This document shows positions 30,745-37,719 of a stretch of 45,062 bases of DNA, piece after piece. The stretch comes from a virus. Within the stretch, counting starts at the first letter, position 1. Each line of letters opens with the position of its first letter. The position numbers and the translations under genes were made by a program. Location: IMG/VR virus record IMGVR_UViG_3300020020_000673, positions 1 to 45,062 of that record. One strand, given 5' to 3'. The notes under the pieces were generated by a model, which saw only the letters and a list, made by a program, of their open reading frames with translations, made no database searches and had not been told where the DNA came from.

Positions 30745-30792
30745 GGTGGCATCCTCGGCCTCGCCTCCTTTGTGGAGGGGTCCGTGGAACCC

Positions 30793-30811
30793 GCAGGGGA
30801 TCGAACCCTGC
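30793..30811 (-). other. tRNA T-arm-like hairpin, candidate attachment-site fragment
   Basis: On the minus strand it reads as a 6-bp stem (GCAGGG/CCCTGC) around the loop TTCGATC, a textbook tRNA T-arm, followed by CGGGTTC where an acceptor strand would be. No matching 5' acceptor or D/anticodon arms exist upstream, so it is not an intact tRNA. Temperate phages often carry the 3' end of a host tRNA in attP. Confidence 0.4.
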
Positions 30812-31048
30812 TGCGGTGCGCGTTACGCCTCGGTGATCGTCCAGGCTCCGCATCCGGCAGTACCTTGCAGTCCGTGGCCCCGGGCGCCGGCCGCGCGCTT
30901 TCGCGCTGCGCTCTCGTCTGCCTCGGGGCGGTGGTTCAACCCACGCGCTGGTGGGGTCTTTCCCGATAGCCCTCCTGCTGCCCCTCGCGGGGTCCCGGTT
31001 CCTGGCTAGTGGTTTGTGCTTCTGGAGTTGTCAACGTCTTGCTCTCCC

Positions 31049-31139
31049 TTAAGTATGCCTCGCTAGCGTGACATACGCAAGCCTGAGATAGGACTAGGGA
31101 TGTGATGTTAGTCACACTAGCGAGACGTACGGGTTGACA
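31049..31139 (+). promoter_or_regulatory. operator repeats and -35 element upstream of the HTH gene
   Basis: A dyad CTTnnGTATG...CATACnnAAG spans 31049-31081 and is centred on CGCTAGCG. CTAGCGTGACATACG (31063-31077) recurs as CTAGCGAGACGTACG (31117-31131), 54 bases on. TTGACA at 31134-31139 is a perfect -35 hexamer; the -10 is unclear. This looks like an autoregulated promoter of the gene at 31165. Confidence 0.55.
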
Positions 31140-31164: not shown

Positions 31165-31407
31165 ATGGCAGGACTACGAATCACCTACGAAGGCAAGCTG
31201 GTCCTCACGACCACCCAGGCCGCGGCCAGGTACGGCATGACCGTGCCCACCATGCGCAAGACGCTGAGCCGGCTCGCCCTGGATCAGGTGCCCGACGAGC
31301 TCGACGGCCGCACGCCGCTCTACTACGCCGCCGAGCTGGACGGGGCCATGAAGGCCCGGCCCGGCAAGGGAGCCAACTTCCGCCGATCAGCCGAGGGCGA
31401 TCACTAG
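31165..31407 (+). CDS. small helix-turn-helix DNA-binding protein (possible excisionase)
   Basis: An 80-residue protein. TTTQAAARYGMTVPTMRKTLSRLAL (about 17-41) is a helix-turn-helix, and TPLYYAAELDGAMKARPGKGANFRR is a wing plus basic tail, like MerR/HTH_17-type small regulators. Size and fold suit a recombination directionality factor, but a repressor is equally possible. Repeats in its upstream region suggest it binds there. Confidence 0.78.
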   Translation: MAGLRITYEGKLVLTTTQAAARYGMTVPTMRKTLSRLALDQVPDELDGRTPLYYAAELDGAMKARPGKGANFRRSAEGDH

Positions 31408-32040: not shown

Positions 32041-32322
32041 GTGTTCATGGTCAAATCCCGAGGTCGACTTGGGAGTAGAAAGCGATCTCGCAAGGTGCCG
32101 CCTACGCGCCTGTCCTACCGCGCCATCGCCGAAGACCTGGCGGAGCGCATCTCCCGCGGGGAGTACCCACCTGGCTCCCAGCTGCCCTCCTACCGGCAGC
32201 TGGCCGAGATCTACTCATGCTCGGTGACGACCGCCCAGTCCGCTCTGCGGCTGCTGCGGGAGCGCGGACTGACCGTCTCCCAGCCCGGCCGGGGCGTGTA
32301 CGTCGCCGAGCCGGGCACCTAG
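32041..32322 (+). CDS. GntR-family winged-helix regulator (DNA-binding domain only)
   Basis: A 93-residue protein, the GntR winged helix without an effector domain. SYRAIAEDLAERISRGEYPPGSQLPSYRQLAEIYSCSVTTAQSALRLLRERGLTVSQPGRGVYVA covers the entire motif. Starts at GTG 32041, ATG 32047 or GTG 32095 are possible; the first 18 residues are basic. Short GntR proteins of this kind are frequent on actinomycete integrative elements. It is followed by a strong terminator. Confidence 0.88.
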   Translation: MFMVKSRGRLGSRKRSRKVPPTRLSYRAIAEDLAERISRGEYPPGSQLPSYRQLAEIYSCSVTTAQSALRLLRERGLTVSQPGRGVYVAEPGT

Positions 32323-32337
32323 GTGTCTTCTCGCAGC

Positions 32338-32370
32338 GGGCCCCCAACTAGCGGTGTTAGTTGGGGGCCC
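32338..32370. terminator. bidirectional terminator between GntR and integrase
   Basis: A perfect 13-bp stem (GGGCCCCCAACTA with TAGTTGGGGGCCC) and a 7-base loop. It separates two converging genes and would stop transcripts from both sides. Confidence 0.9.
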
Positions 32371-32386
32371 GGTCTGTAACAATGCG

Positions 32387-33301
32387 CTACGCGGCAACGC
32401 TCTTTTGGGGGCTCGTCGCGGGAGCGGGCAGCGTTCTGATTGCACTCGTGCGCTGCTCGCTCACCACCAAGGTGTAACCCTGGGTGCTGGTGATCGACTT
32501 ATGTCGAAGCAGCTCCTGGACGGTGCGCAGGTCGGCGCCGTTGGCCAGTAGCGTCGTGCCGTACCAGTGTCGGAACCGGTGCAGGTGCACGTCCGGTAGG
32601 CCGATGCGCTGCCAGTGCTTGTGCTGCCGGTTGGACAGGGCCTGGCCGGTGACCTCCCGGCCGCGGACGCCGCGGACCAGCGTCCCGGACAGCCGGTGTT
32701 CGATCTGCGGCCACAACTGCGGGTGCATCGGCACGTACGCGTCCCTGCCGCCCTTTCCGGCCCGGATGGTGATGCTGTCAGGGGTGCAGTCCTCGCGCCG
32801 TAGCCGGCAGATCTCACTGGCCCTCAGCCCGGCGTACGCGGCGAGGTAGACGGCCAGGCGCCACGGCTGGTCGGGAGACTTCTCGATGGCGGCCGCGAGC
32901 TCGGCGTCGGTGACGGGGTGGGGGACGGACTCGCCGGCCTTGGGGCGGATGAGCCGGTGCATGGGGTTGATGTCGAGTTCGTCGTTGCGGACTGCCCAGT
33001 TGTAGAACCGGTCGAGGTGGCTCCAGTACGTGGAGCGGGTCCAGGCGGACCAGTCGGGGTGGGCGAGGTAGTCGGCGAGTTCGTCGGGGTGGGCTTCGTC
33101 GAGCCCGTAGGGGAGGAATGCGTCGGCGTGCTCGAGGAGCCGTTCAGCACTGTCGACGGTGACTTTGCTGTAGCCACCGGCGCGTAAGTGCGCGAGGTGG
33201 ACGTGAACCAGTTCACTCATCGTGTGATCGTGCTCACGGATCGCGGATGTGTCAGTCCCTGCCAGGTGTCTTTCACCCGTTCGTCGCCGAGGAGTGGTCA
33301 A
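32387..33301 (-). CDS. tyrosine integrase
   Basis: A 304-residue site-specific recombinase. Residues about 28-115 are the SAM-like core-binding domain. Catalytic residues are R160 (AGLRASEICRL), K183 (AGKGGRDAYV), H241 and R244 (HLHRFRHWYGT), H267 (LLRHKS) and nucleophile Y276 (STQGYTLV). It ends QKSVAA, similar to an ssrA-type degradation tail. A TTG at 33301 overlaps the repressor stop as TTGA; an ATG at 33220 would shorten it by 27 residues, but neither has a clear Shine-Dalgarno. The gene is co-directional with and directly behind the repressor. Confidence 0.93.
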   Translation of the reverse strand: MTTPRRRTGERHLAGTDTSAIREHDHTMSELVHVHLAHLRAGGYSKVTVDSAERLLEHADAFLPYGLDEAHPDELADYLAHPDWSAWTRSTYWSHLDRFYNWAVRNDELDINPMHRLIRPKAGESVPHPVTDAELAAAIEKSPDQPWRLAVYLAAYAGLRASEICRLRREDCTPDSITIRAGKGGRDAYVPMHPQLWPQIEHRLSGTLVRGVRGREVTGQALSNRQHKHWQRIGLPDVHLHRFRHWYGTTLLANGADLRTVQELLRHKSITSTQGYTLVVSEQRTSAIRTLPAPATSPQKSVAA

Positions 33302-33684
33302 CTGGCTACTCGACTCGCGGCATATGTCTGACCAATTCGGCGTGGCCGTCCATCGCGCGGCGCGTGGCTATCGGAGCGACCGGAGGGGCGGGAATCACGC
33401 GGCCGTCGCGGCTGCGGAATGTGCGCGTCGGGGTACCGCAGAGTAGTGCTACCGATGGCGGCGCGCACTAGGTCAACGGCGTCGACTTCCAGGACCCCGG
33501 CGATGCGCTCGAGGTCGTTGAGGTCGATCGCCTGTTGTCCGTTGAGGCGATACGACACCCACGCTGCGGATACGCCCAGGGCCTCTGCCAGCCGGGCTCC
33601 CTTGATGCCACGCCTGAGCATGAGCACGCGGATCTCTTCGGCCACCAGCTCCGTGAGTGGCCGGGTCGTTACATCGATAGCCAT
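33298..33684 (-). CDS. XRE-family immunity repressor
   Basis: A 128-residue protein. ELVAEEIRVLMLRRGIKGARLAEALGVSAAWVSYRLNGQ (about 12-50) is a helix-turn-helix of the XRE type, followed by a short helical part to about 80. The last about 45 residues are Pro/Ser/Arg/Asp low-complexity and end AASRVAS. A TTG two codons upstream is an alternative start; the ATG at 33684 is preferred. The gene lies divergently from the Cro-like gene across the operator and overlaps integrase by four bases. It should hold the lytic genes off in the lysogen. Confidence 0.85.
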   Translation of the reverse strand: MAIDVTTRPLTELVAEEIRVLMLRRGIKGARLAEALGVSAAWVSYRLNGQQAIDLNDLERIAGVLEVDAVDLVRAAIGSTTLRYPDAHIPQPRRPRDSRPSGRSDSHAPRDGRPRRIGQTYAASRVAS

Positions 33685-33695
33685 GCGCAATAGCT

Positions 33696-33712
33696 TATGC
33701 GCTCAGCGCATA
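33696..33712. promoter_or_regulatory. operator palindrome in the genetic switch
   Basis: TATGCGC and GCGCATA around TCA form a perfect 7-bp dyad, with related half-sites ATGCGC at 33683-33688 and CTATGCAA at 33724-33731. On the minus strand it lies between TTGCGC and TAAGCT, a plausible -35/-10 pair (16-base spacing) for the repressor, so binding there would give autoregulation. Confidence 0.7.
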
Positions 33713-33747
33713 GGCGCAACCCCCTATGCAACTTCTCACGTCAGAGC

Positions 33748-33776
33748 TTGACGGCTTACGCTATGCCGAATATCGT
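33748..33776 (+). promoter_or_regulatory. rightward early promoter
   Basis: TTGACG (33748-33753), a 17-base spacer, then TATCGT (33771-33776). The Cro-like ATG begins seven bases after the -10, so the transcript is probably leaderless. Confidence 0.65.
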
Positions 33777-33782
33777 TCGGGC

Positions 33783-34052
33783 ATGGCTACGGCTCTTGGA
33801 CGAAGGATCGCCGACGAGGTGCGCAACTACCTCGCACAGCAGGAGATCACCCAGCAGGAACTCGCCGACCGGCTCGGCAAGCGGCAGTACTGGGTGTCCC
33901 GGCGACTGACCCACCAAGCCGCGATCCACGCCGACGAGTTGGTGGTCATCGCAACCGCTCTCGGCCAGCCCGTCAGTCGCTTCATCCCGGACAACGTGGA
34001 CGTAGCCGAGCCGGTCGGCCGCAAGCGGCGCACTCAGCGGGCCGCCGCATGA
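33783..34052 (+). CDS. Cro-like XRE DNA-binding protein
   Basis: An 89-residue protein. RIADEVRNYLAQQEITQQELADRLGKRQYWVSRRLTHQAAIHADELVVIATALGQPVSRF is a complete XRE helix-turn-helix domain. The C-terminus is basic and ends RAAA. The start at 33783 is chosen because the promoter -10 lies just ahead and the longer frame would begin upstream of transcription. Placed divergently from the repressor, it should favour lytic growth by repressing the repressor promoter. Confidence 0.85.
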   Translation: MATALGRRIADEVRNYLAQQEITQQELADRLGKRQYWVSRRLTHQAAIHADELVVIATALGQPVSRFIPDNVDVAEPVGRKRRTQRAAA

Positions 34053-36874: not shown

Positions 36875-37719
36875 CCCAGACCGTCTCGGATGCGGTCGCC
36901 AAGCGCGACAACAGCCCGATCGCGCTCATCAAGACGTACACCAACGACTTCGCCTCCGTCCTGCCCTCGCACGTCAAGGCCGACACGTGGGTGCGGCTGG
37001 CCCAGGGCGCGCTGCGCAAGGGCAAGCGGGACCAGGGCGGCGCGTTCGAGCTCGAGCAGGCCGCCGCCAACAACCCGGGCGTCTTCCTCGCCGCCCTCCT
37101 CGACGCGGCCCGCCTCGGCCTCGAGCCCGGCACCGAGCAGTACTACCTGACACCCCGCAAGGTGAAGGGCCGGCTCGAGATCCTCGGCATCGTCGGCTAC
37201 CAGGGCCACATCGAACTCATCTACCGGGCCGGCGCGGTCGCCTCCGTCATCGCCGAGGTGGTGCGGCAGAACGACCGGTACCGCTACACCCGCGGCGTCG
37301 ACGACGTGCCGGTGCACGAGTACCCGCCGTTCCAGCGTGAGGCCGAACGCGGCCCGCTCGTCGGCGCCTACGCGTACGCCCGCATGAAGGACGGCGCCGT
37401 GTCCCGGGTGGTCGAGTTGAACGCCGACGACATCCTGCGCATCAAGGCGTCGTCGCAGGGCGCCGATTCGGAGTACTCGCCGTGGCGCAACCACGAGGCT
37501 GCGATGTGGCTCAAGTCGGCGGTCCGGCAGCTGCAGAAGTGGGTACCCACGTCGGCCGAATACCGGCGCGAGGTGCTGCGGGCCAGCGCGGAGGCGAACC
37601 GGGTGGCCGAGGCGCGGGAGCTTCCGCCGCCGCCGGCCGACTCGCAGGAGATGGTCGAGGGCGAGGTCGTCGACGAGCGGGCGTGGCCGGAGGTCGTGAA
37701 GCCGGCTGATGCCTCGTGA
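36871..37719 (+). CDS. recT: RecT single-strand annealing protein
   Basis: A 282-residue RecT-type annealing protein. VRLAQGALRKGKRDQGGAFELEQAAANNPGVFLAALLDAARLGLEPGTEQYYLTPRK and GIVGYQGHIELIYRAG are the conserved core. The C-terminus is acidic and variable. It overlaps the YqaJ stop and would coat the single strands that enzyme makes. Confidence 0.94.
   Translation: MTQTVSDAVAKRDNSPIALIKTYTNDFASVLPSHVKADTWVRLAQGALRKGKRDQGGAFELEQAAANNPGVFLAALLDAARLGLEPGTEQYYLTPRKVKGRLEILGIVGYQGHIELIYRAGAVASVIAEVVRQNDRYRYTRGVDDVPVHEYPPFQREAERGPLVGAYAYARMKDGAVSRVVELNADDILRIKASSQGADSEYSPWRNHEAAMWLKSAVRQLQKWVPTSAEYRREVLRASAEANRVAEARELPPPPADSQEMVEGEVVDERAWPEVVKPADAS

What the first reader, a model, noticed from the sequence alone, without database searches (positions are those of the whole stretch)
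32387..34052. Integration-dependent immunity-like switch
Repressor and integrase are leftward and overlap (TTGA), and Cro is divergent: the layout of mycobacteriophages BPs and Brujita, in which attP lies inside the repressor gene and integration trims a degradation tail. Here the repressor has an expendable low-complexity C-terminus ending RVAS, and integrase ends SVAA and Cro RAAA, like ssrA-type tails. CGGAGGGGCGGGAATC at 33381-33396, within the repressor, resembles a tRNA 3' half on the minus strand.
Basis: partly seen in the sequence, partly recalled or inferred. Interest (0 to 1): 0.75.

Follow-up and report, generated by a model that had tools for sequence, protein, structure and literature searches.

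The report
Phage repressor–integrase switch, integration site unlocated
A soil actinobacterial phage carries a repressor–integrase–Cro control module that probably belongs to the known class in which inserting the phage DNA into the host activates the repressor, but the insertion site inside the repressor gene, which defines that class, could not be found and the proposed tRNA match fails.

Summary
Two other soil-phage contigs (integrase 92% and 82% identical) keep the layout. The integrase is arm-less and most similar in the PDB to gp33 (5VFZ, the Brujita integrase from my own knowledge). All 14 nearest phage relatives examined, 33-36% identical in integrase, carry a tRNA T-arm inside the end of the repressor gene, the integration-dependent-immunity hallmark. 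The window and its two close relatives do not. The '33381-33396 tRNA 3' half' fails three tests: no T-arm, no match to 109 actinobacterial tRNA genes, and no tRNA with that end in 396 genomes. That does not refute the idea: published M. abscessus MabN prophages run integration-dependent immunity on a short non-tRNA core, and one of them is the phage integrase that groups nearest to ours (moderate support). Tails of the A-[ASV] type end 8% of neighbouring proteins but 11/12 repressors and 13/16 integrases of this set. Against: the 'expendable' repressor tail is under protein-level purifying selection, and the best DNA-conserved candidate site (paired 14-bp dyads, 33203-33237) lies outside the repressor. 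Probable member of a known kind; decisive feature unproven.

The parts
33298..33684 (-). HTH (Cro/CI-type) repressor, 128 aa from ATG 33684; C-terminus AASRVAS; codons 92-121 Arg-rich and conserved as protein
   Evidence: PF13560 4.4e-9; phrog_4583/2328
32387..33220 (-). arm-less tyrosine integrase, 277 aa from conserved ATG 33220 (TTG 33301 possible); C-terminus KSVAA, homologues KSAAA and KSQAA
33783..34052 (+). Cro-like HTH protein, 89 aa from ATG 33783, C-terminus QRAAA
   Evidence: 100%/85% identical in L002/L003
33696..33712 (.). 17-bp perfect palindrome TATGCGCTCAGCGCATA in the repressor promoter region: likely operator (inferred)
   Evidence: one site in the window, 0.06 expected
33748..33776 (+). 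early rightward promoter candidate TTGACG-17-TATCGT; the ATG 33783 would be a leaderless start; lies in a 34-bp stretch identical in L003
33370..33406 (-). divergence island between window and L002 (7 substitutions in 37 bp), 72-108 nt from the repressor stop, where relatives carry the tRNA T-arm; candidate attP inside the repressor, but 6 of 7 changes are at third codon positions
33203..33237 (.). two GTGA-N6-TCAC dyads 21 bp apart across the integrase ATG, conserved in L002 and L003; rival candidate recombination or regulatory site outside the repressor
32337..32371 (.). 16-bp perfect hairpin between convergent integrase and gntR; likely bidirectional terminator
   Evidence: -33.3 kcal/mol, z -7.2; an equivalent hairpin of different sequence follows the integrase in L003

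Best explanation
This is most likely an integration-dependent immunity module of the BPs/Brujita kind, using a short non-tRNA attachment core. In the infecting phage, repressor and integrase are made leftward from one promoter with the palindromic operator 33696-33712, and both carry C-terminal degradation signals (VAS, VAA). If enough integrase survives, it recombines an attP in the 3' part of the repressor gene (best guess near 33370-33406) with a host site. This replaces the end of the repressor and leaves a stable, shorter repressor that shuts the rightward early promoter and blocks superinfection. Shown: gene order, homology, tail motifs, operator palindrome. Inferred: degradation, attP position, truncation and immunity.
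For: Arrangement kept in two further phages. Arm-less integrase, best PDB match 5VFZ Gp33. 14 of 14 nearest relatives examined carry a T-arm-type attP signature in the same part of the repressor, starting 63-104 nt from the stop in most (39 nt in one). The integrase groups, at 89/93 support, with prophi62-3, a MabN prophage annotated and published with attP in the repressor and an 18-bp non-tRNA core. The tail type of repressor and integrase is enriched against neighbouring proteins, and a relative's repressor (Walrus) ends IAS. A divergence island lies at the expected place (p about 6e-5).
Against: No attP was found in the repressor in tRNA form or by DNA search of actinobacterial genomes. 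The repressor tail, including what integration would remove, is conserved as protein rather than as DNA, and the L002 island is mostly synonymous. The repressor ends VAS or VAV, not AA. The branch joining prophi62-3 is long and not starred. Actual host unknown.
Confidence: 0.55

Rival explanations
1. Ordinary temperate module: repressor and integrase share an operon, but attP lies at the repressor-integrase junction or the integrase start (33203-33300), so integration leaves the repressor intact and instead cuts the integrase off from its promoter or start.
For: The only long non-promoter DNA-identical stretch of the repressor/junction region that is also symmetric is 33210-33238, with two GTGA-N6-TCAC dyads 21 bp apart and 6-bp centres, kept in all three phages. 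attP immediately upstream of int is reported in other actinophages (PMC10865867). The repressor tail is under protein-level selection.
Against: All phage relatives examined have attP or its signature inside the repressor. Low synonymous change at the integrase start is not significant (p 0.076), and longer identical runs occur inside int. No match of 33160-33255 or 33221-33345 to actinobacterial genomes beyond noise. The dyads could be regulator sites.
Confidence: 0.3
2. tRNA-type integration-dependent immunity exactly, with a tRNA 3' half at 33381-33396.
For: GATTCCCGC is a common T-arm 3' strand; the position fits relatives.
Against: The T-loop start TTC is absent (phage has CGT). No T-arm on either strand, no match to 109 tRNAs, 1 of 396 genomes with the implied tRNA end and that one not a tRNA. 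The segment differs in L002 and L003.
Confidence: 0.04
3. Degenerate or repurposed module: the integrase acts in another role or the phage integrates elsewhere, so the resemblance is inherited gene order only.
For: No attP/attB found anywhere. Some Gordonia phages (Bowser) have the same look and no identifiable attP (PMC5559632).
Against: The integrase is intact, with the RKHRHY residues present in the alignment, and conserved in three phages together with its AA tail.
Confidence: 0.11

Closest known systems
Integration-dependent immunity of mycobacteriophages BPs, Brujita, Charlie (clusters G, I, N, P)
   Same: Leftward repressor and integrase, divergent Cro, arm-less integrase, A-rich C-terminal tails on repressor and integrase
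   Different: No tRNA-derived attP in the repressor; integrase only about 36% identical to the nearest of them; repressor ends VAS, not AA; Arg-rich conserved repressor tail
M. abscessus MabN prophages (prophi62-3; attB-13, non-tRNA)
   Same: Phage integrase grouping nearest in the tree (moderate support); published as integration-dependent with attP in the repressor without a tRNA
   Different: Repressors barely similar (15/43 identical residues in the HTH); MabN repressor and integrase lack ssrA-like tails per PMC8092301, whereas here the integrase ends VAA
Gordonia phages Obliviate, Walrus, YungMoney, TillyBobJoe
   Same: Same gene order and integrase family; Walrus repressor ends IAS, like VAS here
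   Different: They carry a tRNA T-arm in the repressor
Gordonia phage Bowser
   Same: Looks integration-dependent by tails and layout, but no attP identifiable (PMC5559632)
   Different: Not compared by sequence here; known from the paper only

Membership tests
Integration-dependent immunity (BPs type) | Repressor and integrase adjacent, same strand, likely co-transcribed; Cro divergent | tested here: met
Integration-dependent immunity (BPs type) | attP located inside the repressor ORF | tested here: inconclusive
   tRNA form not met; non-tRNA core not found but not excludable without the host
Integration-dependent immunity (BPs type) | C-terminal degradation tag on the virally encoded repressor | tested here: inconclusive
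   Ends VAS, VAS, VAV; class A-[ASV] enriched 11/12 against 5/66, but not the canonical AA; stability not testable
Integration-dependent immunity (BPs type) | ssrA-like tag on the integrase (many but not all members) | tested here: met
   VAA, AAA, QAA in three phages; motif only, degradation not tested
Integration-dependent immunity (BPs type) | Arm-less integrase related to Brujita Int | tested here: met
   aligned from the core-binding domain; 5VFZ Gp33 E 2e-28 with the window sequence alone, 2e-94 with the profile
Integration-dependent immunity (BPs type) | Prophage repressor truncated, stable and active; no immunity without integration | not testable with these tools
   needs a lysogen
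tRNA-dependent lysogeny (Fionnbharth type) | lambda-like integrase with arm domain, short core in a host tRNA, phage-encoded tRNA of the same type | tested here: not met
   arm-less integrase; no credible phage tRNA: the ARAGORN hit 37326-37423 lies inside the recT-like reading frame

The most novel reading that the evidence does not exclude
The recombination site is the paired dyad across the integrase start codon (33203-33237). Integration then beheads the integrase gene instead of trimming the repressor, so the same repressor-integrase layout works as a self-limiting integrase switch, and the Arg-rich repressor tail is a functional domain rather than a removable degron.
Probability: 0.15. 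Interest if true: 0.5.

Novelty: new member of a known kind. Interest (0 to 1): 0.35.

Why it matters
If integration-dependent, it extends the class to an uncultivated soil-phage lineage whose integrase is only about 36% identical to the known ones, probably with a non-tRNA target. It would show that the trick is not tied to tRNA genes and give a test of what the removed repressor tail does. If attP lies outside the repressor, it warns that gene order plus alanine tails is not enough to call this immunity type, an inference often made in phage annotation.

Tried and rejected
tRNA match at 33381-33396: rejected. Best DNA hits of the repressor 3' region in 297 actinobacterial genomes (L036, L039, L048 and others): 21-33 bp, no tRNA near the top ones; the only homologous pair among the listed loci was L044/L045, with a short GC-rich match. 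Prophage relatives through the integrase: genome-contig scans gave nothing close; class search gave a 38% integrase in G557 next to a TetR-like ORF, not a repressor. Terminase-matched prophages (67%) in G509/G700 carry no related integrase or repressor in the stretches read. The T-arm at 30787-30810 as attP: rejected because it is 1.6 kb from int and absent from L002/L003 in the stretch held. The divergence island as proof of attP: downgraded, because 6 of 7 changes are third-position and int shows similar islands. Empty DNA searches of the junction and of int downstream have no positive control.

Full report
What is there. The window is a 45,062-bp IMG/VR virus record, 69% GC; its terminase is nearest among named phages to Streptomyces and Gordonia phages. 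At 32387-34052 lie a leftward tyrosine integrase (PF00589, 1.6e-20), a leftward HTH repressor (PF13560, 4.4e-9) and a divergent Cro-like HTH protein. C-termini are SRVAS, KSVAA and RAAA. Two other soil-phage contigs, colinear by position, keep the block: L002 (integrase 92%, repressor 98%) and L003 (82%, 80%). The TTGA overlap is not conserved in L003, and conserved coding begins near ATG 33220.

Control elements. A perfect 17-bp palindrome (33696-33712), unique in the window, sits just upstream of the repressor ATG. A sigma-70-like promoter (33748-33776) lies just ahead of Cro ATG 33783 inside a 34-bp stretch identical in L003, so Cro may be leaderless. A 16-bp hairpin closes the integrase against the convergent gntR gene, and L003 has an equivalent hairpin of different sequence there.

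The integrase. It lacks an arm-binding domain and aligns from the core-binding domain onward with integrases of integration-dependent phages. Its best solved relative is 5VFZ 'Gp33', which I know as Brujita integrase. In 50,697 phage records no integrase exceeds 60% identity; the best are Rem711, NM241, YungMoney, Walrus, IdentityCrisis and Obliviate at 32-37%.

Test of attP in the repressor, tRNA form. A T-arm test (5-bp stem, TTCRANY loop) was applied to the repressor genes of 14 relatives. All 14 have a perfect T-arm on the antisense strand, starting 63-104 nt from the stop codon in 13 of them and 39 nt in L004. Window, L002 and L003 have none. I collected 109 distinct tRNA genes, mostly from two large actinobacterial genomes: relatives' repressors match them at the T-arm, while the window repressor has only 12-13-bp chance matches.

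attP without a tRNA. PMC8092301 reports M. abscessus prophages with attP in the repressor at non-tRNA sites with short cores (3-25 bp), including MabN at attB-13. prophi62-3 (MabN) ends share an 18-bp core, TACTCGTGAGTAAGAACT, with no T-arm. In an integrase tree the window group falls with prophi62-3 and a genomic integrase at 89/93 and 86/88 support, on long branches. So a missing tRNA does not remove it from the class. Window and L002 differ at 7 sites in 37 bp (33370-33406), where the relatives' T-arms lie (p about 6e-5). This could mark an exchanged attP core, but 6 of 7 changes are third-position and int shows similar islands, so a recombination tract is as likely.

Evidence that cuts the other way. 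Between window and L003, repressor codons 92-121 have 11 synonymous and 4 nonsynonymous differing codons, against 0 and 9 in codons 77-91, and only the last seven codons are loose again. The tail is selected as protein. BPs gives a precedent for a possible role of the viral-form tail (PMC4557955). The strongest symmetric DNA-conserved element is a pair of GTGA-N6-TCAC dyads 21 bp apart at 33203-33237, over the integrase start and outside the repressor. It may be a regulator site, an integrase site or attP.

Tails. Among 66 distinct C-termini of neighbouring annotated genes in related phages, 5 end A-[ASV] and 2 end AA; 11 of 12 repressors and 13 of 16 integrases in the set do (the sets include the window group). 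Walrus repressor ends IAS. The tails are therefore a real feature of the set, but degradation is inferred.

Host. Unknown. The nearest terminases in sampled genomes (67%) are in G509 and G700, two genomes placed in one family by the tool, but no attB match was found in 35 genomes of that family.

Verdict. Probably an integration-dependent immunity module with a non-tRNA core (0.55); the main rival is attP at the junction or integrase start (0.30).

Noticed in passing
window 30787-30848 (-): tRNA-like element: perfect 5-bp T-arm with TTCGATC loop and a partly paired acceptor-like stem; weak Rfam mascRNA match (25.1 bits, below cut-off); folding energy not unusual; not found in L002/L003 in the stretch held
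   Followed up: partly
window 33203-33216, 33224-33237 and 31102-31115: Three GTGA-N6-TCAC dyads (0.66 expected): two phased 21 bp apart at the integrase start and conserved in L002/L003, one upstream of a small HTH (possibly excisionase-like) gene at 31165-31407; the motif resembles CRP-type sites
   Followed up: partly
window 32041-32322 (+): Small GntR-family protein (93 aa, HTH only, PF00392 9.8e-17) convergent with the integrase, separated by a 16-bp hairpin
   Followed up: no
window 37326-37423 (-): ARAGORN tRNA-Met call lies inside the recT-like reading frame; very likely spurious
   Followed up: yes
window 33039-33109: 71-bp stretch of the integrase gene identical between window and L003 while the rest is about 80% identical; sign of recent exchange or mosaic integrase genes
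   Followed up: no
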